Shown here: positions 32,451 to 61,943 of the stretch, one piece after another | Position numbering within the stretch: the stretch's first letter is position 1 | Layout of the letters: every line of letters starts with the position of its first letter | Assembly (NCBI RefSeq): GCF_008830185.1 | Contig: NZ_WAGX01000007.1 | Location: 310,001 to 374,000 of the forward strand | DNA length: 64,000 bases | Direction of reading: 5' to 3' | Source of the DNA: Candidatus Galacturonatibacter soehngenii | Lineage (GTDB): Bacteria > Bacillota > Clostridia > Lachnospirales > Lachnospiraceae | Translations under genes and position numbers: made by a program | Notes under the pieces: model-generated | What the model was told of the DNA's origin: nothing | Database searches by the model: none | The model's input: the letters and a program-made list of their open reading frames with translations, nothing else

Positions 32451-32966
32451 ATGCAAATAAGAAAAAGTACAAAAAGTGATTTGGAACAAATTATAAAATT
32501 ATTTGAACAAGCAAGAATATTTATGAGAGAAAATGGAAATCCCAATCAATGGGGCAATGATTATCCACCGATTTCTCTGATTGAAGAAGATATAGAAGCA
32601 GGAATTAGCTATGTTTGTGAACACGAAAAACGAGTGGTAGGAACCTTTATGTTTTTTGAAGGTCAAGATGAAACCTACGCAACCATATACGATGGAGAGT
32701 GGCTCAATGATAAGCCTTATGGCGTAATTCACAGAATTACCACCGCTACAGACACCAAAGGTGTCGCAACCTTTTGTCTTACTTGGTGTTATGAGCAATG
32801 TCGCAATTTAAAGATTGATACCCATGAGGATAACATACCAATGCAGAATTTATTAAACAAGAATGGATTTCAAAGATGCGGTATCATACATCTAAAGAAT
32901 GGAAAAGAAAGGATTGCTTTTCAAAAATGGGAAGCCAATTCTAAGGAGTTTGGAAAACATGAATAA
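32451..32966 (+). CDS. GNAT-family N-acetyltransferase
   Basis: 171 residues. Start MQIRKSTKSDLEQI and the late strand-helix segment IDTHEDNIPMQNLLNKNGFQ are GNAT marks. The acetyl-CoA loop is weak (IHRITTATDTKGVATFCL). Acceptor unknown. It overlaps rlmD by 8 bp, so the pair is coupled. Confidence 0.75.
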   Translation: MQIRKSTKSDLEQIIKLFEQARIFMRENGNPNQWGNDYPPISLIEEDIEAGISYVCEHEKRVVGTFMFFEGQDETYATIYDGEWLNDKPYGVIHRITTATDTKGVATFCLTWCYEQCRNLKIDTHEDNIPMQNLLNKNGFQRCGIIHLKNGKERIAFQKWEANSKEFGKHE

Positions 32967-34314
32967 AAATGATATATTCACTGTTACAATAGAAGATATG
33001 GGTGCAGAAGGCGAAGGAATCGGAAAAGTGGATGGATTTACTTGGTTTGTAAAAGATGCAGTCATCGGTGATGTAGTAAACGTAAAAGCCATGAAGGTAA
33101 AAAAGAACTATGGGTATGCAAGGCTATTGGAAATACTAGAACCATCCACTTACCGTGTAGAGCCAAAATGCGAATTCCATAGACAATGCGGAGGTTGTCA
33201 GATACAGGCCCTTGATTATAAGCAGCAGTTATTATTTAAAGAAAATAAAGTGCGCAATAACTTAAAACGAATCGGTGGCTTTCATGACCTTACAATACGC
33301 CCCGTAATTGGTATGGAGAATCCTTATCATTACAGGAATAAAGCACAATTTCCGATTCGTCAAGATAAGGATGGAAATATTATAACAGGGTTTTATGCGG
33401 GAAGAAGCCATACGGTTATAGCCAATACCAAATGCTACCTTGGTGATGACATAAATGAGGAAATTCTAGATATCGTACTCTTCTTTATGAAGAAATATAA
33501 GATATCAGCGTATGATGAAGAAACTGGAAAAGGACTCGTTCGCCATGTATTGATACGTGTTGGATTTACGACCAGAGAAATTATGGTTTGTTTAATTATA
33601 AATGGGAAGGAATTGCCAAATAGTCAAAAACTAGTGGATTGCTTGCAAAAAATTAAAGGGATGACTAGTATTTCCATTAATATAAATAAGGAAATTACAA
33701 ATGTAATACTTGGGGAAACAGTAAAAACACTTTGGGGACAAGATTACATTACAGATTATATTGGAAACGTTAAATATCAGATTTCGCCATTATCTTTTTA
33801 TCAAGTAAATCCAGTACAAACCAAAAAGCTCTATGAAACAGCTCTTTCTTTTGCTAAACTTACAGGCGATGAAGTAGTATGGGATTTATACTGTGGTATT
33901 GGTACAATCTCATTATTTCTAGCACAAAAGGCGAAGAAGGTAATGGGAGTTGAAATTGTACCACAGGCCATCGAAGATGCAAAAAAGAATGCTCAAATCA
34001 ATGGAATAACAAATGCTTCTTTTTATGTAGGAAAAGCAGAGGAAGTACTTCCAAATAAATTTAAAAATGATGGAGAATACGCAGAAGTAATCGTGGTAGA
34101 CCCGCCTAGAAAGGGTTGTGACGAAACACTGTTAGATACAATCGCCCAGATGAATCCAAAACGAGTGGTGTATGTAAGCTGTGACTCGGCTACTTTAGCA
34201 AGGGATTTACGGTATTTGTGTGATAGAGGGTATGAGGTGAAGGAAGTACAGCCAGTTGATATGTTTGGGCATACGGTGCACTGTGAAGTAATCGTCAAGT
34301 TAGAAAAACATTAA
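32959..34314 (+). CDS. rlmD: 23S rRNA (uracil-5-)-methyltransferase, RlmD/RumA family
   Basis: 451 residues from ATG 32959 (AAGGAG about 10 nt upstream). TRAM domain (about 1-55, MGAEGEGIGKVDGFTWFV), iron-sulfur Cys cluster CEFHRQCGGC, SAM-binding DLYCGIGTISLFLA, DPPRKGCDE, and catalytic Cys in VYVSCDSATLARDL. It makes m5U in 23S rRNA (1939-type or the dual 747/1939 site in Firmicutes). Its tail DMFGHTVHCEVIVKL is the normal end of the family, and five detached copies of such tails occur in the following 28 kb, all on the same strand. Confidence 0.9.
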   Translation: MNKNDIFTVTIEDMGAEGEGIGKVDGFTWFVKDAVIGDVVNVKAMKVKKNYGYARLLEILEPSTYRVEPKCEFHRQCGGCQIQALDYKQQLLFKENKVRNNLKRIGGFHDLTIRPVIGMENPYHYRNKAQFPIRQDKDGNIITGFYAGRSHTVIANTKCYLGDDINEEILDIVLFFMKKYKISAYDEETGKGLVRHVLIRVGFTTREIMVCLIINGKELPNSQKLVDCLQKIKGMTSISININKEITNVILGETVKTLWGQDYITDYIGNVKYQISPLSFYQVNPVQTKKLYETALSFAKLTGDEVVWDLYCGIGTISLFLAQKAKKVMGVEIVPQAIEDAKKNAQINGITNASFYVGKAEEVLPNKFKNDGEYAEVIVVDPPRKGCDETLLDTIAQMNPKRVVYVSCDSATLARDLRYLCDRGYEVKEVQPVDMFGHTVHCEVIVKLEKH

Positions 34315-34336
34315 AACATTGTAATATCAATAGTTT

Positions 34337-34371
34337 AAGCCATTGAATGTGTAGATGACATTCAATGGCTT
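34337..34371 (+). terminator. Terminator after rlmD
   Basis: AAGCCATTGAATGT (34337-34350) pairs with ACATTCAATGGCTT (34358-34371), followed by TTG. Confidence 0.65.
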
Positions 34372-34675
34372 TTGTGTATGTGAGAACAAATCTACTTGAT
34401 TCCTGATCAAAATATAAACGGAAAAAATCTTTTATTTGTCAAATTATAGAATTATTAGTTGAGAAATGCTACAAGATGCTATAGAATTAATGTAATAATA
34501 TCAAAGAATTGGTGAAAAAGCGTTAGATAGATTTCTGTATTATCTAAGGATTAGATTCATTCTAGATTATGGTTGTTAGATAAGTGCTAGAATATCTGAA
34601 CTTAAGGAAAGTAAAAGTATAAGGAAATTTTCCAAATAGAAAAAAGATAGATGGAAATAATGAGGAGGAGATCAC
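34372..34675. other. Leader region of the STAND defence gene
   Basis: About 300 bp without a coding frame of note. It should hold the promoter of the large gene; TTGTCA at 34437-34442 is a candidate -35 with no convincing -10. A strong GAGGAGGAG ribosome site lies just before ATG 34676. No RNA motif recognised. Confidence 0.3.
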
Positions 34676-37600
34676 ATGGGATTATCAGATGCACATAAAG
34701 GATATGAATATCAAGACTTACTTACTTCATATTTTATTATTAACGACCTTCTTAAAGGAAATTCTTCAGAGTTCAAGGTTGACATTAAGGAATGCGATGA
34801 TGATAAATTCGATGATCTTACCGTGATTAATAATAATGAGGTAGTAAAACGACAGATTAAGTATAGTGATGATAAAATTGTAGCAAAAGGTGATTTCTCA
34901 TCTATAGATTATGATCTCGCTCTAGATGTGCTATACAATTCATGGGAAAAGTTAGATTACGAAAGAGATGTATCATTAAAAATACTTCTTGCATGGGACT
35001 ATAATGATAATCTTGATTTTTTAGAAGAGATAGGAACAAGCAATGATTTTACATATTCAAATGTGAAACAATATAGGATCAATATAGATAAAATTTGGTC
35101 TGTAAAAGAAGAAAGACCCATAAGTTCTTGGAGACGATTAAGAAATAATATGGAAGGGGTATCCAGGGAAAGTTTCAAGGAATTCCTCCAAGATTTAAAA
35201 GTAGAGCTATGCTTACCAAAAGCAAGTTTAGATATAGGAAATAAAGGTGAAATGGAAAGAATCACTGTCGATTGTCTAAAGGATTTTGGTGTAGGAACTT
35301 ATCCGAATCATGAAGTATCACCAGAAAACGTCCTCCTTAGGCTAATGAATATTGTAAAGAATGCAAGAGCTAACCAGAAAACACTAAAAACGCATCAGGT
35401 AGTTAGTGCTTTAGGTCTAGTTGTTGGCTATGGGAACATAGAACAACTATTTCCTGTTGATTTAAGCAATAATATATACGATATAAATACATTTGAAGAA
35501 TTCTATTCAAATATCTGTAAGAACAATAAAACTTTATTAATTGGTGAACCGGGATCTGGAAAATCGTGGTTTATTACTAACTTTATTGAGTACCTTAAAT
35601 CACAAAAGATTTTATTTGCTAGGCATTATTGTTATACAAGTTTGGATGATATATTTTATTCAGATAGAATCACATCGAATATATTCATGGCTAATCTTAT
35701 TAGAGATATTATGCTTGTCTGTCCAGAGTTAAAGGACATAAAGACATCAAAGTTTGGTGTTGATGAAAATGAACTTCAATCACTAATTGACCATATTGAT
35801 AAAGAGATTGTCTTAATAATAGACGGACTTGACCACATTGAGAGGATAAAGTCATCCAATGAATCTGCTGTAGGAGCAAATAAGACTGATATCATAGAGA
35901 TAATCAAGCGATTAAATGTGCCTGAAAACGTGAAAATCGTCGTTGTATCACAGCCAGTTTCAGAAGTATTAGAATTATGTGGACAAAATTATACACTCAC
36001 TGAAATTCAAAACTGGGATACAAGTAGGATTAATAGATACCTTGAAATTAGGTGTATTGGTATGTATGAAGAAATAGAAGAAGTGACATTAAGTAGCTAT
36101 TTATTTAATAAGAGCAATGGCAATCCTCTATATGTTACTTATTTAGTCAATGAACTTTCGAGAGCTAGTATTCTAGATTCATGGATGGATATCCTTGACT
36201 CAATTCCAGACTATAATGATGATTTAAAGGGGTACTACGATTATTTATTAGAACAGATTGATGAAGATCATAAAGTAGTATATGTATTATCTGGAGCATC
36301 TTTCTATTTAAGTATTGAAGAACTGAAAGATATAACAGGTTTAGGTAGCTATGTTGAAAAGAGGATAAAGATACTACGCAGCATACTTAAAGAAAGTGTT
36401 GTAAATGGTGGTTTTATAATTTACCATGAAAGTTTCCGGCGATATATACTAGAATTACTTGAAAGAAATGGGCTATCAATTTATGAGAATATATATAAAG
36501 ATCTTATCATGTGGCTTGAGAGTATAGGTGTATATAGCAATAATAAAGCATACAACAATTTGTTTCGCTTGTTATATGAATTAGGCCAATATGATAGACT
36601 ATTGGAATATGCTAATGTTGAGTTTGTTAGTGAAAGTTTATTTAAAGGATATGGATTTAATGCAATAAAGAAAAATTCAGATTATCTTGTGAAAGCTGTA
36701 ACTAAGAAAAAGTCATTCGATAAATTGGTAATACTTTCAGAATTGTCCAATATAGTATTAAATGCAGAATTTGACTATGAAATTTATGAAGGAAAGTACT
36801 CGATGTGCATTGGACAAATTCATGGGTTTCAATGGTTAAGTGAAATACTTATATATGAAGGAAAAGCGAACATGCCTTTGAAAGAAGGATTGAGAGTCTG
36901 CTACTCCTGCTCACGTAATTATATTACTCCACCGTGGGATCTATATATAAATGAGATGCTAGAGGAAAGTAAACATAATAGAAATATCAATTGGGAAGAA
37001 GAAAAAGAACAACTTAAATATTTGACAGCTGCTTCAGTTGATATTGACAAAAATCGAGATAGTGTTGTTCGCTATGCAACTGATAGTGGAAATATAGAAT
37101 ATATGAAAATTGTATTAAATGAGTATGTTCATAGAGACAGATTAGTTGAGCTCATCTCACTTATTACAGATATGGGATTAATAGAACAATGGCATGGCTT
37201 GATAGAGGGCACTGATCAAGACGAGTTAGATGTAGTATATGCAAAAGATATTCTCAATACAGTAAAAACTTCTGATAGTATTTATGGTGATGCGGAAAAT
37301 AAAATTAAATATCTGGTTGAAAATGCAATGAAAATTTATGAAACATATCCTCATCATGTAGATAGATTAATTGAAGACATTACTGATTTAAGTTGGTTTC
37401 ATAATTGGATTATCTTTGTTTTTCAAGCTAGTAAGATTGAGAAAAAAAGTGAAATTACCGGAGATGATTTAGTAGAAATTTATTCAAATCTAAATAGGGT
37501 AACAGAGGTAGCAAATCACAGTATACGCACTATGGACTTATATGGTTTAAGAGAAGAAATTTATGATACTATCCAAAAGCCACTGAGAGATGTAAGTTTA

Positions 37601-40468
37601 TGTGAGGCTGAATGGAAGGAAATTCTTGATATAATTGTTGAGTTATCAAGTGACACAATGGTAACTTTTCAAAATGCAATGATGGGTCCATTAACGACTG
37701 ATAGGTTATTTGACTTAGTTACAGAGATAACTAATGATGAAAACTATGACCTTGTTTTACAGCATTTTGGTGAGATTACAGAAGAACAAAAAACAAGAAG
37801 AATACATATGGATTTAGCTGATTACTATATGCAGAAGTGTATTTTCCTATGCAAGAATAGTAATACAGATCAAGGAATCAATGAATTCCGAAATGCTATA
37901 ATAATGATAATGTCATATGGACAACGTAGAGATAGAACACTTAGTAGATTAATGGATACAGTTGAAGATGTTTATAGCATAGATTCAGAAAAGGGCAGGG
38001 AGTGTATAAAGCGGTTAGGTTCAATGTCAGTTGCAGTAGTAAGACAAACTGATGGAAAAGAAACAAGCAATTATGAGAATGAGTGGTCTCAATTGTTGTG
38101 TAAATATGAGCCAGAATTAGCATTGAGGAAATTCATCGTAGATTCGGAAACATATAAAAGATCTTGGATATGTGAAAATACACTAGAAGCAATACTTACT
38201 AATTGGCTAACATCAAAATACTCAAGAATCGGAAATGCATTGTTTAAGACTATGCCTAATAAAAGCAGCAGTGATTTTATACAAGCTTACATCAATAATA
38301 TTGCCTTGTTAGACAATGAGGGAGAAGTACTTTTAGCAAGAACTTCTATCATTGATTTAATAAGCAAATTTAAATTTAATGATGATGCATATGAAGTAGA
38401 AAAGCAATTTATAGATCCTATAACCGGTTTTTGCGAAAAACATGGTATTGATTGCAATTTGATTGAATCAGAAGGGTATACAGTGACACCTACTACTAAT
38501 CAATATAATCACACTCAAATAACAGAAACTTTTAGTAATAAATATATGGATGAGAGCAATATATATGAGGTTTTAGACTTCATGAAATTATATGGATATT
38601 CTGAAGAGGTAAGTAGTGCTGTTAAGACATATTTGGTGAATAAAGAAGAATTATCTCAAGAAGTTGTGTTTGTTATTAATCAACTTGTTGATTTTGCTTT
38701 TGAAAATCCTGTTTCTAGTCAGTATTCTAATATTCAAGAGGAAGTAATCTATCTAGGTGGAATGGACGAAATAATAAATAGCATAAAGGCATATATTAAT
38801 CTACGGATTTATCTTACTCAGAAGGATAGTTGGTATCATAAATATAGTAGTTATGAGTTTTTCGAAAAGGCTTATAATCTAGATAAAAGATTGGTTATTG
38901 ATTCATACTTTGATTATTTTGGGAGCTTGAATAAGCCTTTTGAGGGTCTTAACGGGTTGTCAGGAAATATAATAAAAATGCTATCATGCGTTGACAACGG
39001 TCGAGAGGAAGTTCTAGATTTGTGGGACATAGTTTATGATGTTATTGATTTACGATTGAGTTGTAGATCAGAGATTGAATGGGAAAAAATTGAAAGAGAA
39101 TTTGAAGGATACTGCATTGAAGAGTTGCTGCATCAGGCATTATTAACGAGATTGCGTTATGGTACAGCGGATATACATAAATCGGTTTTTGCTTCTCTCG
39201 AATCAATACTTACGCAAGATACAGAGAGAGCCATGTTTATAAGACCATTTAAACGGGTTTTGACCAATCATTCTAAATATATTAACTTAAGTGTGACTAT
39301 GTTGATTCAGTTAGTTGAAGATATGTATTCTTATGAGGAAAGAGAGCAATATCAATTACTAGATCTTGATGACTATATTTGCACTAATGAATGTGGAGAT
39401 GAAGGATTCCTATTAAAGTTTCTGTTGGGGAAAGAGATGATTGAAACTGTCAAACCAAATGTTCAGACTACTGATCAAGGATTTAATGATTTCATTCTAC
39501 AAGAATTCAAAAGTATATACCCAAGATATAAGTTGCTAGAAGATAGGGGTATATCGGTAGATGATTATATTCTTGGTTTCTTCGGTGAGCTTCATAGTGA
39601 AATAAATAGGAAAATTTTATCTGAGACATACATGGACAGCAAATCTAGTTTATTGATGGATAATATCCAGATTCATAGTGATTATCTAAAGTCAATTGGA
39701 AATGCGGTTATAAATCATTTGAGTTGCGAAAACAAACCTGGAAATGTTTTTTCAATATTGAGAAGTCTTGAAGAAAGAGAATACTTTTACCATAGTATTA
39801 GAGAAGATATACTATTGTTAAATGCAATTAGTAATTCAACAATAACAAGACCTAATGGAATACCACACCCGAAGGATGTAAATGACAGTGTGTCTAGTGT
39901 AGATGAAGGAGACTGGATTAGGTTAGCATATATTGAACGAGAATATGTGTATACGGAAGATTTATGGAGAGCCAAGCATATTGGTGATAACTGCAAGATA
40001 TTTCAGACATGTTCTGCTGTGGGGTTTGGTAAAAGTAATAGATTGCCTTTATATCATGATTCCTATAGAGGTTCTGTTCTTGAACATATATATCCTAAAT
40101 ATATGTATCCGGCAGGTCTTAAGGGTAAAGAAATCGTAGTTTTTACTGATGCAAACATTGGTTATAATCCATTTATGACATACTTTCGATATGATTATTT
40201 AGCGCTTACCTTTGAAGTACTTAGTTTATTGGAAATAACAATGACAAGTAATGATAAAGGTTTGATTGGAATAGATTCAGAGGGAAAATGTGTACTTAAG
40301 TATCAAAATTGGTGTACGTATAAACACTTAACTGGCGAACATGAAAGAACTCCAGTATTAAGAGGAAGTCAGCTCCTTCTATCAAAAGAGATTTTTGATA
40401 AGCTAGTTAGTGAAATTGGTCATGAACCATATTGTCATACTACAAGTGAATTGATTTTTGGTAAATAA
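34676..40468 (+). CDS. Large nuclease-STAND ATPase, Avs-like anti-phage protein
   Basis: 1930 residues. N-terminal Cap4/DUF4297-type nuclease (about 1-190): KGYEYQDLL start, then FDDLTVI (Asp46/47) and RQIKYS (Gln60-x-Lys62), a PD-(D/E)xK core. A P-loop STAND/NACHT-type ATPase follows (about 260-620): Walker A GEPGSGKS (290-297), Walker B IVLIIDGLDH (Asp383) and a KSNGNPLYVTYL sensor region. The remaining 1300 residues are helical, repeat-like and unrelated to simple families by eye, the place where Avs proteins recognise phage terminase or portal. A single gene suffices in known Avs systems. Long, intact reading frame in the first module after rlmD. Which phage protein it senses cannot be told. 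Confidence 0.8.
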   Translation: MGLSDAHKGYEYQDLLTSYFIINDLLKGNSSEFKVDIKECDDDKFDDLTVINNNEVVKRQIKYSDDKIVAKGDFSSIDYDLALDVLYNSWEKLDYERDVSLKILLAWDYNDNLDFLEEIGTSNDFTYSNVKQYRINIDKIWSVKEERPISSWRRLRNNMEGVSRESFKEFLQDLKVELCLPKASLDIGNKGEMERITVDCLKDFGVGTYPNHEVSPENVLLRLMNIVKNARANQKTLKTHQVVSALGLVVGYGNIEQLFPVDLSNNIYDINTFEEFYSNICKNNKTLLIGEPGSGKSWFITNFIEYLKSQKILFARHYCYTSLDDIFYSDRITSNIFMANLIRDIMLVCPELKDIKTSKFGVDENELQSLIDHIDKEIVLIIDGLDHIERIKSSNESAVGANKTDIIEIIKRLNVPENVKIVVVSQPVSEVLELCGQNYTLTEIQNWDTSRINRYLEIRCIGMYEEIEEVTLSSYLFNKSNGNPLYVTYLVNELSRASILDSWMDILDSIPDYNDDLKGYYDYLLEQIDEDHKVVYVLSGASFYLSIEELKDITGLGSYVEKRIKILRSILKESVVNGGFIIYHESFRRYILELLERNGLSIYENIYKDLIMWLESIGVYSNNKAYNNLFRLLYELGQYDRLLEYANVEFVSESLFKGYGFNAIKKNSDYLVKAVTKKKSFDKLVILSELSNIVLNAEFDYEIYEGKYSMCIGQIHGFQWLSEILIYEGKANMPLKEGLRVCYSCSRNYITPPWDLYINEMLEESKHNRNINWEEEKEQLKYLTAASVDIDKNRDSVVRYATDSGNIEYMKIVLNEYVHRDRLVELISLITDMGLIEQWHGLIEGTDQDELDVVYAKDILNTVKTSDSIYGDAENKIKYLVENAMKIYETYPHHVDRLIEDITDLSWFHNWIIFVFQASKIEKKSEITGDDLVEIYSNLNRVTEVANHSIRTMDLYGLREEIYDTIQKPLRDVSLCEAEWKEILDIIVELSSDTMVTFQNAMMGPLTTDRLFDLVTEITNDENYDLVLQHFGEITEEQKTRRIHMDLADYYMQKCIFLCKNSNTDQGINEFRNAIIMIMSYGQRRDRTLSRLMDTVEDVYSIDSEKGRECIKRLGSMSVAVVRQTDGKETSNYENEWSQLLCKYEPELALRKFIVDSETYKRSWICENTLEAILTNWLTSKYSRIGNALFKTMPNKSSSDFIQAYINNIALLDNEGEVLLARTSIIDLISKFKFNDDAYEVEKQFIDPITGFCEKHGIDCNLIESEGYTVTPTTNQYNHTQITETFSNKYMDESNIYEVLDFMKLYGYSEEVSSAVKTYLVNKEELSQEVVFVINQLVDFAFENPVSSQYSNIQEEVIYLGGMDEIINSIKAYINLRIYLTQKDSWYHKYSSYEFFEKAYNLDKRLVIDSYFDYFGSLNKPFEGLNGLSGNIIKMLSCVDNGREEVLDLWDIVYDVIDLRLSCRSEIEWEKIEREFEGYCIEELLHQALLTRLRYGTADIHKSVFASLESILTQDTERAMFIRPFKRVLTNHSKYINLSVTMLIQLVEDMYSYEEREQYQLLDLDDYICTNECGDEGFLLKFLLGKEMIETVKPNVQTTDQGFNDFILQEFKSIYPRYKLLEDRGISVDDYILGFFGELHSEINRKILSETYMDSKSSLLMDNIQIHSDYLKSIGNAVINHLSCENKPGNVFSILRSLEEREYFYHSIREDILLLNAISNSTITRPNGIPHPKDVNDSVSSVDEGDWIRLAYIEREYVYTEDLWRAKHIGDNCKIFQTCSAVGFGKSNRLPLYHDSYRGSVLEHIYPKYMYPAGLKGKEIVVFTDANIGYNPFMTYFRYDYLALTFEVLSLLEITMTSNDKGLIGIDSEGKCVLKYQNWCTYKHLTGEHERTPVLRGSQLLLSKEIFDKLVSEIGHEPYCHTTSELIFGK

Positions 40469-40633
40469 GTTTACAGATAATGTAATGAATACTATTTCTA
40501 TTTCTCAATTGGTTCATTATTGTCACGTCTCTTCTTCGAACGGAGTTTAAGTAGGTTACACTTATTAGGATAGTTATTTTAAGATCATGTAAAATATAAT
40601 AACCCTTCCGCTAATGAACCAGTGGGTACCAAC

Positions 40634-40705
40634 GACATCATTATTGTCACCTCAAGTCATGTTGAGTGCGTAGCATTGATGTCAAGGGTGGAGGTATATT
40701 ATTAA
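40634..40705 (+). repeat. Scar A: detached RlmD-type C-terminal tail
   Basis: Reads DIIIVTSSHVECVALMSRVE then a short end and TAA. It is centred on the dyad CTCAAGTCATGTTGAG (40651-40666). Same strand as rlmD. One of five copies; interpreted as an attachment-site remnant. Confidence 0.6.
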
Positions 40706-40743
40706 TAACTTACATGTGATTGATTATTGTTTATGTTTATATT

Positions 40744-40777
40744 CCCTCAGACTATTTAAAATGTCTTGAGGGACTTT
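40744..40777 (+). terminator. Terminator-like hairpin after scar A
   Basis: CCCTCAGAC (40744-40752) pairs with GTCTTGAGGG (40763-40772) with one bulge, then TTTTT. The same TTCCCTCAGAC text recurs near 47980 in the fourth module. Confidence 0.45.
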
Positions 40778-40859
40778 TTCTATGAGGGGACGGTTCTCTA
40801 TATACTTTTCTATTATCTTCACTTTAGTCATAATTTCAAAAAATATATAAAAAAAACTA

Positions 40860-40890
40860 TTGCATATTACGTTACGTAATGTGATTTAAT
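40860..40890 (+). promoter_or_regulatory. MerR-type promoter and operator
   Basis: TTGCAT (40860-40865), 19-bp spacer, TTTAAT (40885-40890). The spacer holds a perfect dyad ATTACGT-T-ACGTAAT (40866-40880). An over-long 19-bp spacer with an internal dyad is the classic MerR-activated promoter, which the regulator twists into shape. It drives the merR-like gene itself and the ABC genes. Confidence 0.7.
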
Positions 40891-40911
40891 TTTTACTGAG
40901 GAGGAGCTGTG

Positions 40912-41691
40912 ATGAATAAAAAGAGGCATTTTTCTATAGGTGAGATTGCAAATTTAACAGGGGTGACTATAAGAACCTTGCAATATTACGATAATATTGG
41001 GTTAGTTCCATTGAATAAGGAATTGACTAATGGCCGTAGATACTATGAAGAAAGAGATCTTACAAAGTTACAGCAAGTTCTCTTTTACAAATCTTTAGGA
41101 CTTCCTATAAAGGAGATCAAAGAACTTGTGGTTGAAGCTGTTACCGTGGAGCAAGTAGCTGATGTGCTTCAAAAGCAGAAGCAGATTTTTTATCAAAAGT
41201 TAAATGATGTGAAAATGAGTATATCTTTAATTGATGCTAGTCTAAAAAGCTTAGGAAAAAACCAAGGACTGATTCCAGGAGAATTAGTGCAGTTAATGAG
41301 TACATTAAATAAGGATTTGATCTTTGAATATAAGGATGTTCATTATGATGAAAAAACCGAAAAAGTTTTTATAAATCATTATGAAAAAACAGAGGAAGTT
41401 ATTGAAACTTATTGGAAGTGGAAGGCTCTCGTAGTAGAAGCTGTTACACATATTATTAATGGTGTTGATCCAAAAGATAGCCAAGGACAGGATTTTGCTA
41501 AAAGGTGGGTGGAAATGGTAGCACAGGTGACAGGAGGAAGGCTTGAATTGCTCGAAGCCCATAAAGCAGCTTATGAAAATCGTAATCAATGGCCTGAAGA
41601 AGATAGAAGGCTAATGGAGTTTGCTGATGAGTTTATTGATAAGTCTGTGGAAAGCTATTTAACAGTGGAAAAGGAGAAAAAATATGATTGA
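40912..41691 (+). CDS. MerR-family regulator
   Basis: 259 residues from ATG 40912 (GAGGAG upstream). MerR winged helix (about 4-75, SIGEIANLTGVTIRTLQYYDNI), a dimerisation coiled coil (about 80-125), and a C-terminal helical ligand domain (about 130-259) with TipAS-like helical content. It overlaps the ABC ATPase gene by 8 bp. Probably senses a drug or peptide and activates the operon through the 19-bp-spacer promoter. Confidence 0.8.
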   Translation: MNKKRHFSIGEIANLTGVTIRTLQYYDNIGLVPLNKELTNGRRYYEERDLTKLQQVLFYKSLGLPIKEIKELVVEAVTVEQVADVLQKQKQIFYQKLNDVKMSISLIDASLKSLGKNQGLIPGELVQLMSTLNKDLIFEYKDVHYDEKTEKVFINHYEKTEEVIETYWKWKALVVEAVTHIINGVDPKDSQGQDFAKRWVEMVAQVTGGRLELLEAHKAAYENRNQWPEEDRRLMEFADEFIDKSVESYLTVEKEKKYD

Positions 41692-43865: not shown

Positions 43866-43982
43866 ACACAAGAATTTCTTATTAAGTGAATAAAATACTC
43901 TCTAATGCGATTGATATGTTCCCGTCTACCGATAACTCCAAAAACGTAGTAGATATGTTTCCGAGAACGGGCAGTTTCAAAT

Positions 43983-44060
43983 GACATTCATTTTATCCTC
44001 TCAAGCCACGTTGAGAGTATAATTCTGATGACGTATTGTGGTAATGATGAGAAAAAATAG
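43983..44060 (+). repeat. Scar B: detached RlmD-type C-terminal tail
   Basis: Reads DIHFILSSHVESIILMTYCG plus NDEKK and TAG. Dyad CTCTCAA-6-TTGAGAG (43998-44017), the most perfect of the five. Located 118 bp after the decayed VOC gene. Confidence 0.55.
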
Positions 44061-47537: not shown

Positions 47538-47747
47538 GAATAATCATTTTAGATAATGAAGGATACAGAGTGGATTTAATTGCTTGTTAATCTATCCTTG
47601 CCAAGTAGTAAGGGTATGATAGGTTGATGGATAGAAAACTTATTCATTTACTTTCAAAATACATTGTACTGGTGTTGCTGGACGGCTATAAATTTTTACT
47701 AACTTTACCATTGCATAGTAACCACTAAGGGTATAATATCAATCTAC

Positions 47748-47807
47748 GACATCTTTATTGTCACCTCAAGGCATGTTGAAGCCGTAACACTGCTTGTGAA
47801 GGAGTAA
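47748..47807 (+). repeat. Scar C: detached RlmD-type C-terminal tail
   Basis: Reads DIFIVTSRHVEAVTLLVKE then TAA. Dyad part CTCAAGGCATGTTGA (47765-47779). The region 47538-48017 around it is otherwise without genes, apart from the further tail-like frame at 47884. Confidence 0.6.
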
Positions 47808-47883
47808 AACGATTGAAGAAGCAGATGTACGTCTCATGTCAGGAATGTCCAAGAGCACGAGTGAAGCGAATTGGGATTGGAAA

Positions 47884-50865: not shown

Positions 50866-51139
50866 AAGCAAGAAAGATTACACAATAAAAATAACACTTT
50901 AAATTGTGATGAACAAAGCCTTCAAATAAATAAATATTTGGGGGTTTTGTTGCTTACAATTTTAATACAAAGAGTATTAGAATGTAATAGCAAATATCAA
51001 GTATCAAATTACCAAGATAATACTTGCCTAAATGTAAAGAGTAATATTATGGTTGAAATCAGAAATTCAAAAAAAATGTAGGAGAATTGCTAGAACTTCA
51101 GAAATATACTATTCCACCAAGGGGGTACTAGATACTTAC

Positions 51140-51205
51140 GACATCATTATTGTACTCTCAAGGCATGTGGAGACCGTCTGTTGTCTACAAAGGGTGAATA
51201 TGTAG
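51140..51205 (+). repeat. Scar D: detached RlmD-type C-terminal tail
   Basis: Reads DIIIVLSRHVETVCCLQRVN then M and TAG. Imperfect dyad CTCTCAAGGCATGTGGAGAC (51155-51174). Marks the left edge of the ICE-remnant module. Confidence 0.6.
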
Positions 51206-51404
51206 AAATCCTTGAATTTACGCACTTTGCGAGGGTTTTTAAGTTCACTGGGAAATCGAATTTTGGAAGAAAAAAAGAGATTTCCAATGAGATTAAAGTC
51301 TCAGTAGTTATAGAACTGGTATGAGTGGACACAAAAATATATCGTTCATAAATCGGATGCTTTCAGTAAAATAAACCATCAACAATTTCATAAGAAAAAG
51401 TCGA
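51206..51404. other. Left end of the ICE remnant, non-coding
   Basis: About 200 bp with no supported gene. It includes a small hairpin (GGAAATCG / GATTTCC around 51250-51295). In relatives this interval holds the element end and regulatory DNA. Confidence 0.3.
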
Positions 51405-55893: not shown

Positions 55894-57471
55894 GTGGCAG
55901 TTAGCAGGAATGTAACAGTAATTCCAGCAATTAAACGAATCGGAAATAATAAAAATAGTGAGAGTAAACCCAAAATACGAGTAGCGGCATACTGCCGAGT
56001 TTCAACGGATAGTGAGGAGCAGGCCTCAAGTTACGAAATTCAGATTGAGCATTATACAAACTATATTAAGAGGAACAAGGGATGGGAATTGGCAGGTATT
56101 TTTGCGGATGACGGTATCACCGGTACCAGTACGAAAAAGCGTGATGAATTTAACCGCATGATTGAAGAATGTATGGCAGGAAATATTGATATGATCATCA
56201 CAAAATCCATCAGCCGATTTGCTAGAAATACGTTGGATTGTCTTAAATACATCCGGCAGTTAAAGGATAAAAACATTGCTGTGTTCTTCGAGAAAGAGAG
56301 TATCAACACCATGGATTCTAAGGGTGAAATATTACTGACTATCATGGCATCCCTTGCCCAGCAAGAAAGCCAATCCTTAAGCCAGAACGTTAAGCTGGGT
56401 ATTCAGTATCGATACCAGCAAGGTGAAGTTCAGGTCAACCACAAGCGTTTCCTTGGTTACACCAAGGATGAAAACAAGCAATTAGTGATTGATCCAGAGG
56501 GTGCTAAAGTTGTTAAACGGATTTACAGAGAATACCTTGAAGGAGCCAGTCTTTTACAGATAGCCAGAGGACTAGAAGCGGACGGCATTCTCACAGCGGC
56601 AGGCAAAGCAAAATGGAGACCTGAAACACTAAAAAAGATACTACAGAATGAAAAGTATATTGGTGATGCCCTTCTACAAAAAACATATACAGTTGATTTC
56701 CTTTCTAAAAAGCGAGTAAAGAATAATGGCATTGTTCCCCAGTATTACGTAGAAAACAGCCATGAGCCTATCATTCCACGTGAACTTTTTATGCAGGTTC
56801 AAGAAGAGATGGTTCGAAGAGCCAATCTTCGCGGCGGCAAGGGTGGTAAAAAGCGAGTTTATAGTAGTAAGTATGCCTTATCAAGTATTGTTTACTGCGG
56901 ACAATGCGGTAATATTTACCGACGAGTACATTGGAATAACCGAGGTTACAAGTCTATTGTTTGGAGATGTGTCAGTCGTTTAGAGGAAAAAGGCTCTGAA
57001 TGTACGGCCCCTACCATAAACGAGGAAACATTACAGGCAGCAGTGGTTAAGGCTATTAACGAACTTTTGGATAACAAAGAGCCCTTCCTCTCAACGTTAC
57101 AGAAAAACATAGCTACCGTCCTTAATGAAGAAAATGATAATACCACCGATGATATTGATAGAAAATTGGAAGAGTTACAACAACAGCTCCTTATACAAGC
57201 AAAATCAAAGAATGACTATGAAGATGTTGCTGATGAAATTCATCGACTTCGGGAATTAAAGCAAAATGCACTTGTAGAGAATGCAGAGCGAGAAGGAAAA
57301 AGGCAACGAATCAATGAGATGACAGACTTCTTAAATGAGCAGTCCCATGAGCTGGAGGAATATGATGAGCAGATTGTTAGAAGGCTTATTGAAAAAGTTA
57401 CGGTATTTGATGATAAACTCACCGTTGAATTCAAATCAGGTGTTGAAACTTATATAAAAGTTAAAGAATAA
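55894..57471 (+). CDS. Large serine recombinase (ICE integrase)
   Basis: 525 residues, GTG start. Catalytic domain (about 30-180): [20 protein letters not shown] with the serine nucleophile in CRVST, then [20 protein letters not shown] and RFARNT. Recombinase domain (about 200-310), zinc ribbon (YCGQCG ... [12 protein letters not shown]), coiled coil (about 420-490). It cuts and joins attachment sites. The tail scars A to E with an imperfect dyad are candidate targets. It is the only intact integrase in the island. Confidence 0.9.
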
Positions 57472-61761: not shown

Positions 61762-61856
61762 TATTGTGGTTTTAGGCATGGAAATTGTACTAGATGATAA
61801 GTTTTGTCAAATTTTTTGAAAGATATACTTCCAACAAGGGGATACCAGCTTCAGGT

Positions 61857-61922
61857 GATATCATTATTGTCATCTCAGAGCATGTGGAATGTGCGGTATT
61901 GATGTCAAGGGTGGATAAATAG
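61857..61922 (+). repeat. Scar E: detached RlmD-type C-terminal tail, right end of the island
   Basis: Reads DIIIVISEHVECAVLMSRVD then K and TAG. Dyad is weaker (CTCAGAGCATGTGGA, 61873 on). If insertions stack next to rlmD, this outermost scar is the oldest and could be the original tail of rlmD. Confidence 0.6.
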
Positions 61923-61943
61923 AAAGGCTGAAAAAAGCTTATA

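What the first reader, a model, noticed from the sequence alone, without database searches (positions are those of the whole stretch)
34676..40468. 1930-residue Cap4-like nuclease STAND protein as sole cargo of the first module
Seen: FDD...QIKYS nuclease core, GEPGSGKS, IIDGLDH, and a 1300-residue helical sensor. Known: Avs proteins couple such parts and sense phage terminase or portal. The placement directly after a recombination hot spot, framed by a scar, suggests a mobile single-gene defence cassette. The sensor half seems unlike any family I can name.
Basis: partly seen in the sequence, partly recalled or inferred. Interest (0 to 1): 0.7.

Follow-up and report, generated by a model that had tools for sequence, protein, structure and literature searches.

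The report
Giant phage-sensor gene on mobile cassette
A single, very large gene that looks like an immune receptor against bacterial viruses has been inserted, alone, into the end of a housekeeping gene where other DNA units landed before; its type was not named by the defence catalogues searched, and its last part is a separate gene in two distant bacteria.

Summary
It matches no Avs model over its length, and its sensor shows no detectable relation to the Avs2 and Avs4 proteins I fetched (a test of limited sensitivity). I found 11 intact members, the ten relatives 23-81% identical to the window protein, in Clostridium and other genomes of its phylum, two gammaproteobacterial plasmids and one cyanobacterial plasmid, plus two broken copies. 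Three lie directly beside BREX, CBASS or PD-Lambda-4/Avs4-like genes, one near type I R-M.

Two things are new here. First, the last ~310 residues are a distinct module, fused in 9 of 11 intact members but a separate, overlapping downstream gene in the two gammaproteobacterial ones (profile E 6e-18, 1e-16). Second, the 'scar' is a displaced 3' end of rlmD that still reads as an RlmD C-terminus and stop. Five lie in the window, a sixth just beyond. Removing 34282-40660 in silico restores a normal RlmD tail; a congener lacks 34.28-51.16 kb there. The gene is thus sole cargo of the newest of several serial insertions into rlmD. Defence activity, trigger and present mobility are inferred. Both structure predictions failed.

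The parts
34282..40660 (+). Module 1: the unit inserted into the 3' end of rlmD (far end uncertain by one codon, 40657-40660); only cargo is the STAND gene
   Evidence: Congener G150 runs from rlmD (window 34281) straight into window 51163; removing 34282-40660 restores an RlmD tail HTVHVECVALMSRVEVYY
34676..40468 (+). 1930-aa nuclease-STAND-sensor protein
34676..35320 (+). N-terminal PD-(D/E)XK-type nuclease domain, Cap4-like (residues 1-215; GYxYQD, D46 D47, QxK62)
   Evidence: Invariant in 11 of 11; sub-threshold PF14130 matches at the N-terminus of relatives
35492..36655 (+). STAND NTPase and following helical/winged part (about residues 273-660; Walker A 290-297, Walker B 381-387, YHESFRRY 583-590)
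   Evidence: Pfam NPHP3_N above cut-off; invariant motifs; the outer limit 660 is my estimate
36656..39493 (+). Putative sensor (residues 661-1606), the most divergent part together with the C-terminal module
   Evidence: Mean pairwise identity among the eight diverged members 0.19-0.34 in 80-residue blocks; no match to Avs2/Avs4
37904..38233 (+). Conserved block inside the sensor (residues 1077-1186, YGxRxDxTL..TDGK) shared with two sister families
   Evidence: hhalign probability 95.1 and 91.4 with the Klebsiella-plasmid and 2034-aa sister families
39494..40465 (+). C-terminal module (residues 1607-1930), a separate overlapping gene in Moraxella and Pseudoalteromonas plasmids
   Evidence: Profile from the nine fused members hits the two partner genes at 6e-18 and 1e-16 among 2012 ORFs, and nothing outside the family at E up to 1
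32899..34314 (+). rlmD (rumA), 23S rRNA (uracil-1939-C5) methyltransferase; integration target; its own tail now HCEVIVKLEKH
   Evidence: NCBIfam rumA/RlmD 3.7e-146; tail
40598..40702 (+). Scar A after module 1; right half (from 40658) reads HVECVALMSRVEVYY-stop, a displaced RlmD tail
43949..44050 (+). Weaker scar after module 2 (tail from 44007 reads HVESIILMTYCGNDEKK-stop)
47704..47816 (+). Scar B after module 3 (tail HVEAVTLLVKE-stop)
51102..51208 (+). Scar C after module 4 (tail HVETVCCLQRVNM-stop, the same tail as the RlmD of congener G150)
61820..61925 (+). Scar D after module 5 (tail HVECAVLMSRVDK-stop)
55894..57471 (+). Large serine recombinase in module 5, candidate enzyme for the rlmD insertions
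   Evidence: Pfam Resolvase + Recombinase + zinc ribbon; a 325-aa stretch 90% identical lies upstream of a scar left half in genome G099

Best explanation
The gene encodes a STAND-type anti-phage receptor of a family outside the catalogued Avs1-5 models. Inferred working: in the resting cell the long C-terminal half and the end module hold the protein inactive; an infection signal, most likely a phage protein, binds that half; nucleotide exchange in the STAND domain lets the protein oligomerise, which pairs the N-terminal PD-(D/E)XK-type nucleases and leads to DNA cleavage and abortive infection. The end module (1607-1930) is a discrete part, probably a recognition or locking cap, because in two plasmid-borne relatives it is a separate overlapping gene. 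The gene reached this genome as the only cargo of a 6.4-kb unit inserted site-specifically into the 3' end of rlmD. The insertion supplied a new end for rlmD and pushed the old end to the far side of the unit, as did the earlier insertions behind it; a large serine recombinase such as the one in module 5 probably did this in trans. Shown by sequence: the gene, the motifs, the family, the split/fused module, the scars and the restorable rlmD. Inferred: defence, trigger, oligomerisation, nuclease activity, the enzyme and present mobility.
For: Catalytic and NTP-binding residues invariant in 11 of 11 intact members down to 23% identity. STAND domain above the Pfam cut-off in the window protein and in 4 of 4 further diverged members scanned. 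Sub-threshold Cap4 matches at the N-terminus in 3 of 7 genomes with a family gene and 3 of 3 sister-family genomes. C-terminal module: forward profile hits both partner genes at 6e-18 and 1e-16 among 2012 ORFs; 8-bp gene overlap in both. Neighbours: PglX-PglZ-BrxL directly upstream (G586), CBASS cyclase and 4TM effector directly upstream (G297), PD-Lambda-4/Avs4-like gene directly upstream (Moraxella), type I R-M two genes away (Pseudoalteromonas). Four copies share 84-92% DNA identity over the gene and short flanks, in otherwise different surroundings. Scars: five in the window, all in the rlmD orientation, each reading as an RlmD tail and stop, a sixth at 67.28 kb; G150 lacks 34.28-51.16 kb at this site; joined flanks restore RlmD. 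A broken relative lies downstream of rlmD, one 107-aa ORF between, in another genus, G138.
Against: No experiment. The window protein has no PF14130 match even at E 10; G054, G586 and G563 gave none and the G000 hit is elsewhere, while a non-family ORF in G297 scored as well (0.0047); a direct hhalign against three PF14130 proteins failed (probability 0.2). No credible PDB match. Structure models are useless (pLDDT 30.8 and 35.0). The neighbours scanned with PADLOC in the window (nine ORFs, 30.5-47.5 kb) show no complete defence system, only generic domain matches. No random-locus control was made for neighbours. The reverse profile, built from the two partner genes, does not list any full-length family receptor at E up to 1; besides the partners it finds only two short window-derived fragments (E 9e-7 and 1e-6, domain E 0.01-0.02). 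Module 1 has no recombinase, and the link to the module 5 enzyme is by association only.
Confidence: 0.7

Rival explanations
1. It is a true but diverged Avs protein (AVAST), sensing terminase or portal, and only looks separate because current models and my alignments are narrow.
For: Same order of parts; local STAND similarity to the Avs1b model in 3 of 5 relatives scanned (E 4.6e-7, 1.2e-5, 0.0016) and PADLOC Avs1b 3e-8 in the cyanobacterial member. My hhalign test was insensitive: even the STAND domain scored only 8.2% (Avs2), 3.2% and 57.8% (two Avs4 sets), so a missed sensor relation is possible.
Against: The model similarity stops at the STAND domain, far below the 1500-bit NCBIfam cut-off. 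Sensor and C-terminal profiles show no match to three Avs2 and five Avs4 proteins (0.3% or less); blastp of all 11 members against them gives nothing below E 0.1 in the printed rows. A fetched Avs4 finds the solved Avs4 chain, our profile does not. Avs1, Avs3 and Avs5 proteins were not compared directly.
Confidence: 0.2
2. It is an anti-plasmid or anti-mobile-element guard, or an addiction-like stabiliser of the island, rather than an anti-phage system.
For: It rides on mobile units and plasmids; STAND-nuclease proteins could in principle sense any intruder protein (inference).
Against: Neighbouring systems in four loci are anti-phage types (BREX, CBASS, R-M, PD-Lambda-4/Avs4-like). No antitoxin-like partner of 100 aa or more lies in module 1.
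Confidence: 0.1
3. The gene was placed here by homologous recombination or a Tn7-like transposon, and the scars are unrelated regulatory repeats.
For: The Lachnospiraceae MAG copy sits beside TnsD/TniQ genes, and there only ~30 bp after the stop are shared with the window. In C. paridis and C. brassicae, and in one G099 copy, the right half of the repeat is not an RlmD tail (for C. paridis read by eye, since the script's anchor missed it).
Against: All five window scars and the sixth beyond read as RlmD codons and a stop; the G150 junction lies at that point; joined flanks restore RlmD. A 1008-bp stretch 99.6% identical between the window and G099 ends at 61882, at the codon where the scar's right half begins. 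In G021 and G139 the repeat model's weak hit is the end of an intact rlmD.
Confidence: 0.06

Closest known systems
Avs1-Avs4 (AVAST): nuclease-STAND-repeat sensor proteins
   Same: N-terminal nuclease, central STAND NTPase, large C-terminal sensor; PMC12931631 (passages seen) says Avs1-4 use nucleases and recognise terminase, portal or Ksap1; PMC11291478 (passages seen) describes Avs3 tetramers pairing nuclease domains
   Different: No PADLOC or NCBIfam Avs assignment; no match found to the Avs2/Avs4 sensors tested; extra C-terminal module that can be a separate gene
Cap4 / DUF4297 nuclease domain (PF14130)
   Same: GYxYQ, DD and QxK motifs (recalled as Cap4-typical); sub-threshold PF14130 matches at the N-terminus of relatives
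   Different: Below the Pfam cut-off in the window protein and in the family and sister genes tested; fused to STAND
bNACHT25 / bNACHT32 (PMC12169576, passages seen)
   Same: PD-(D/E)XK DNase + NACHT module + sensing C-terminus; nuclease needed for defence there
   Different: No sequence comparison with them was made here; the window protein's NACHT match is below the Pfam cut-off (22.6 against 26.7 bits), while NPHP3_N passes
Serine-integrase ICEs inserted in rumA (= rlmD) of streptococci (PMC4701971, passages seen)
   Same: Same target gene; insertion exchanges the 3' end of rumA and so changes the C-terminus of the protein
   Different: There the exchange is with the integrase gene of a conjugative element; here a serial array whose newest unit holds one gene and no recombinase
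SCCmec-type cassettes in rlmH (recalled, from no call)
   Same: Large serine recombinases, insertion at the 3' end of a 23S rRNA methyltransferase gene, tandem units
   Different: Different target gene; unit 1 has no recombinase
Sister family of 2034-aa proteins (G205, G232, G410) and a 1473-aa Klebsiella-plasmid protein (L010)
   Same: STAND domain (hhalign probability 99.8 and 99.4) and the 1077-1186 block; the first also the nuclease (95.0; the second only 1.6 despite shared motifs)
   Different: The C-terminal module was not found in either

Membership tests
STAND NTPase proteins | Walker A and B and a recognised STAND/NACHT-type profile match | tested here: met
   NPHP3_N 30.1 bits over cut-off 24.8; invariant P292 G293 G295 K296 S297 and D383 G384 D386 H387
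Avs1-Avs5 (AVAST) | Match to a curated Avs model over the protein | tested here: not met
   No Avs hit for the window protein in PADLOC (E up to 0.01) or NCBIfam (E up to 0.1); in relatives only local Avs hits in the STAND region, at most 27.4 bits against the 1500-bit NCBIfam cut-off and 29.4 bits in PADLOC
Avs1-Avs5 (AVAST) | Sensor homologous to an Avs sensor | tested here: inconclusive
   Against 3 Avs2 and 5 Avs4 proteins hhalign probability is 0.3 or less, but the same test scored the STAND domains of these proteins only 3.2-57.8. Avs1, Avs3 and Avs5 not compared directly; profile A1 reaches no Avs chain in the PDB
Avs1-Avs5 (AVAST) | Activation by a phage protein such as terminase or portal | not testable with these tools
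   -
Cap4 nuclease (PF14130) | Pfam match above cut-off | tested here: not met
   None for the window protein; best sister-family score 20.1, best family score 19.5 bits, cut-off 26.2
Cap4 nuclease (PF14130) | Catalytic DD...QxK signature near the N-terminus | tested here: met
   G9, Y12, Q13, D46, D47, Q60 and K62 identical in 12 of 12 N-termini, two sister families included (Y12, Q13 etc. by window numbering); PF14130 hits 6 of these 12 at E up to 10, best 4.7e-4. That this signature is Cap4's is recalled
rlmD/rumA site-specific insertions | Target-gene 3' end displaced to the far end of the insert | tested here: met
   Five of five scars in the window read as RlmD tails; joined flanks restore RlmD; G150 comparison
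rlmD/rumA serine-integrase elements | Recombinase inside the unit | tested here: not met
   Module 1 holds only the STAND gene among ORFs of 100 aa or more; a serine recombinase lies in module 5
bNACHT proteins | NACHT module of a bNACHT clade | not tested
   Only Pfam NACHT: below cut-off in the window protein, above it in 1 of 4 relatives (29.8 against 26.7 bits, Pseudoalteromonas)

The most novel reading that the evidence does not exclude
A new class of bacterial NLR-like receptor with a detachable recognition (or locking) cap, used either fused or as a two-gene receptor/cap pair, which spreads as a recombinase-free one-gene cassette that borrows a serine recombinase in trans and rewrites the end of rlmD at each landing, so that rlmD in Clostridia works as a general cassette-capture site for defence and drug-efflux genes.
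Probability: 0.3. Interest if true: 0.75.

Novelty: new variant of a known kind. Interest (0 to 1): 0.55.

Why it matters
It adds a coherent receptor family, present in three phyla, that the defence catalogues used here do not name. The fused/split C-terminal module gives a direct handle on how such giant receptors are triggered or kept off: the split versions let the cap be removed, swapped or titrated without cutting a protein. The rlmD scars give an ordered, readable record of how single defence genes are captured, one after another, at one chromosomal site.

Tried and rejected
AlphaFold2 on residues 1-1180 and 1101-1930: only four close sequences could be used in the alignment; pLDDT 35.0 and 30.8, so no fold search was run. 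PDB sequence searches with the protein, the family profile, the nuclease profile and two C-terminal profiles found nothing credible: the family profile gave a ribosomal mS29 P-loop at E 1.3, the first C-terminal profile designed proteins from E 0.034. Phage records: no match to the window protein among 50,697. Viral contigs: pattern-based scans with the window protein, the family alignment and two diverged members gave no relative; these scans see only sequences that keep a short peptide pattern. Direct hhalign of the nuclease domain against three PF14130 proteins: not significant, so Cap4 is kept as 'like', not as membership. Rfam on 34250-41000: nothing real (snoR113 at E 0.59). I first suspected an attC-like or terminator element for the repeat; rejected once its right half proved to be RlmD codons. 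Literature: Avs6/Avs7/new Avs: no relevant title among the 20 of 28 papers listed; searches joining STAND with Avs, Cap4, NACHT, BREX or AVAST listed no paper that I recognised as describing this family; most lists were capped at 20 and most papers seen only as listings, so a description may have been missed. Passages only were seen of PMC12931631, PMC12799240, PMC12169576, PMC11291478, PMC4701971, PMC12839542 and PMC9712102.
Full report
WHAT IS THERE. The ORF at 34676-40468 is intact, 1930 aa, and single-copy in its genome. Residues 1-215 form a PD-(D/E)XK-type domain with GYxYQD, D46-D47 and QxK62. Residues from 273 on are a STAND NTPase: Pfam NPHP3_N is above its cut-off, NACHT below it. 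About 1270 residues follow residue 660.

THE FAMILY. One genome-contig scan gave close relatives in Clostridium paridis, C. brassicae and a Lachnospiraceae MAG (3 loci confirmed of 21 pattern matches; 79-81% identity over the full length). Distant relatives: G054 (3 of 150 family genomes matched the window protein: own, G054, and a broken copy in G138); G586, G563 and G547 (12 of 398 phylum genomes matched profile A1 at E 1e-3; own and these three are family members, the other eight are partial STAND, sensor-block or P-loop matches); plasmids of Moraxella, Pseudoalteromonas and Pseudanabaena (the three long matches of 23 plasmid records; 20 of the 23 rows were shown). Of 391 class genomes 12 matched; besides our own only G297, a copy interrupted by IS66, is a member; three are a sister family and seven are short matches. 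Of 3 genus genomes only our own matched. In all: 11 intact and 2 broken genes, identity of the ten intact relatives to the window protein 23-81%. The family is rare and scattered. No relative turned up in phage records or in the pattern-based viral scans.

CATALYTIC PARTS. Across the 11 intact members the nuclease and STAND motifs are invariant, while 80-residue blocks of the sensor fall to 0.19-0.34 mean identity among the eight diverged members (L002-L004 left out of that mean; nuclease and STAND blocks 0.30-0.44, C-terminal blocks 0.20-0.29). PF14130 (Cap4_nuclease) is never above its cut-off in family or sister genes. 6 of 12 N-termini match at E up to 10, best 4.7e-4 (the 12 are eight members and four sister-family proteins; the window's own is not among the six). 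By place, matches in G138 (1.4e-3), G547 (3.3e-3) and G297 (0.2) lie at the N-terminus of family genes, and those in G205, G232 and G410 (7.8e-4 to 2.8e-3) at the N-terminus of the sister family; G054, G586 and G563 gave none, and the hits in G000 (0.2), G297 contig 14 (0.0047) and the second in G138 (0.32) lie in other ORFs. Controls in that search rang in 2 of 14 genomes at E up to 1, none above the cut-off. I therefore say Cap4-like.

AVS COMPARISON. PADLOC and NCBIfam give no Avs assignment to the window protein; some diverged members touch Avs1b in the STAND region only. Searches for Avs2 and Avs4 matched 6 of 245 and 5 of 249 genomes; I used the three long Avs2 and all five Avs4 proteins for hhalign. 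The sensor scores at most 0.3% probability and the C-terminal module 0.1%. The same method finds the sister families at 99.4-99.8% in STAND and 86-95% in the sensor block, but the Avs STAND domains at only 8.2, 3.2 and 57.8%, and the Klebsiella nuclease at 1.6%, so its sensitivity with these shallow alignments is limited. The fetched Avs4 finds the solved Avs4 chain 8dgf, whereas our profiles find no Avs chain. Result: not an Avs by model; sensor relation not detectable, but not excluded.

DETACHABLE C-TERMINAL MODULE. In the Moraxella and Pseudoalteromonas plasmids the receptor stops near residue 1580, and an overlapping downstream gene (8 bp overlap; 290 and 287 aa) follows. Blastp of the window protein hits the Pseudoalteromonas partner at 1e-6 over residues 1702-1910. 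A profile of the nine fused C-termini, with the two split members left out, finds among 2012 ORFs of 60 aa or more, from the loci held at that time, only family proteins (including the broken G297 copy) and those two partner genes (E 6e-18 and 1e-16, profile positions 40-296 and 15-295 of 315). The reverse profile from the two partners alone is much weaker: two short window-derived fragments at E about 1e-6, no full-length receptor at E up to 1. In the plasmid collection the Pseudoalteromonas partner finds only itself and the Moraxella one. The sister families lack it. No Pfam, PADLOC or PDB relative was found. It is a real, separable part of this family; my reading, inferred, is a recognition or locking cap.

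NEIGHBOURS. Of 13 loci, three have clear defence genes directly adjacent: PglX-PglZ-BrxL 23 bp upstream (G586), CBASS cyclase and 4TM effector (G297, broken copy), a PD-Lambda-4/Avs4-like gene with a NACHT gene before it (Moraxella). One has type I R-M genes two genes away (Pseudoalteromonas). One is probable: a GajA/OLD-like gene downstream (C. paridis). Weak or generic: a kinase (L003) and a PDC-S64-like gene (L097). None found among nine window ORFs, three L004 ORFs and one L096 ORF scanned; the one L098 ORF scanned is RlmD itself; L009 and L095 neighbours were not scanned with PADLOC. There is no random-locus control.

THE SCAR. A search of the genome with the DNA after the gene found further copies in the same window and orientation. 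A model from seven copies locates scars at 40.6, 44.0 (weak), 47.7, 51.1 and 61.8 kb and a weak one beyond the window. The left half is alike; the right half varies, and on translation it reads HVECVALMSRVEVYY*, HVESIILMTYCGNDEKK*, HVEAVTLLVKE*, HVETVCCLQRVNM*, HVECAVLMSRVDK* in the window and THVETVVLMSHRDK* at 67.28 kb: C-termini of RlmD. The congener G150 has rlmD ending HTVHVETVCCLQRVNM* and runs from the equivalent of 34281 directly into window 51163 onward; in G144 the genes after rlmD are unrelated to the island. Joining 34281 to 40661 in a script gives an RlmD of 475 aa ending HTVHVECVALMSRVEVYY. So each unit entered the 3' end of rlmD, gave it a new end and displaced the old one; the unit next to rlmD, ours, is the newest. 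Elsewhere the repeat model hits 18 of 150 family genomes, own included. Of ten copies read in six further genomes, nine have an RlmD-like tail (one with an early internal stop, two without a stop within the 24 codons shown, one drifted) and one, in G099, does not. Two weak hits, G021 and G139, are simply the ends of intact rlmD genes (HVETVVLMSKVKE*, HVESVCLIERVTE*). In C. paridis and C. brassicae the left half follows the STAND gene but the right half is not an RlmD tail; in the MAG L003 a scar with an RlmD tail lies 4.6 kb downstream of the gene. In G138 a broken relative of the gene lies downstream of rlmD, with one 107-aa ORF between, and no scar was found there.

WHO MOVES IT. Module 1 has no recombinase. 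Module 5 (51.16-61.88 kb) has a large serine recombinase; a 325-aa stretch 90% identical stands upstream of a scar left half in G099, and a 1008-bp stretch 99.6% identical between the two genomes ends at the codon where the right half begins, although in G099 the right side is not an RlmD tail. Serine-integrase ICEs in rumA with exchange of 3' ends are known from streptococci (PMC4701971, passages seen). What differs here is the array of small units, one with a single gene.

HOW IT LIKELY WORKS. By analogy with Avs, bNACHT and DUF4297 proteins (PMC12931631, PMC12169576, PMC11291478, PMC9712102; passages seen): a phage protein binds the C-terminal half, STAND-driven oligomerisation, nuclease pairing, DNA cleavage, abortive infection. 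All of this is inference from architecture. PMC12839542 discusses STAND-like BREX parts but, in the 12 of 29 places seen, no Cap4-STAND receptor next to BrxL; the counts there give no occurrence of 'Cap4', 'NACHT' or 'Avs' in its main text.

VERDICT. An ordinary kind of system by general plan (STAND nuclease receptor), an unnamed family by the catalogues searched, with one unusual feature (detachable end module) and a well-resolved mode of arrival. New variant of a known kind.

Noticed in passing
window 40661-61880: Modules 2-5 behind the STAND module, each closed by an rlmD-tail scar: MerR regulator with ABC transporter; WYL regulator with a short UvrA-like ABC protein; DUF2268 protease with a TipAS-type MerR; ParB/TnpV/actin-like/rve integrase core/large serine recombinase/DUF3626. 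Several look like drug-response or efflux cargo.
   Followed up: partly
window 34267-34314: The resident RlmD ends HCEVIVKLEKH instead of the HVETVxLMSR-like ends of relatives, because the insertion supplied its last codons; effect on the enzyme unknown.
   Followed up: partly
L003:731-5322: Two adjacent TnsD/TniQ genes and a TniB-like ATPase beside the STAND gene in a Lachnospiraceae MAG: a Tn7-like element perhaps with two target selectors.
   Followed up: no
L094:190-12630: A 2012-aa member sits 23 bp behind brxL in a BREX locus: possible BREX-embedded receptor.
   Followed up: partly
L117:652-6756, L118:484-6588, L122:459-6563: Sister family of 2034-aa nuclease-STAND proteins sharing the middle block 1077-1186 but no C-terminal module.
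   Followed up: partly
L010:5377-11240: Klebsiella plasmid 1473-aa nuclease-STAND protein with a downstream gene that abuts or overlaps it (481 aa, annotated as a DMT permease); perhaps another receptor/partner pair.
   Followed up: no
L041:5003-11428: A 2141-aa ORF behind rlmD in congener G150, function not examined.
   Followed up: no
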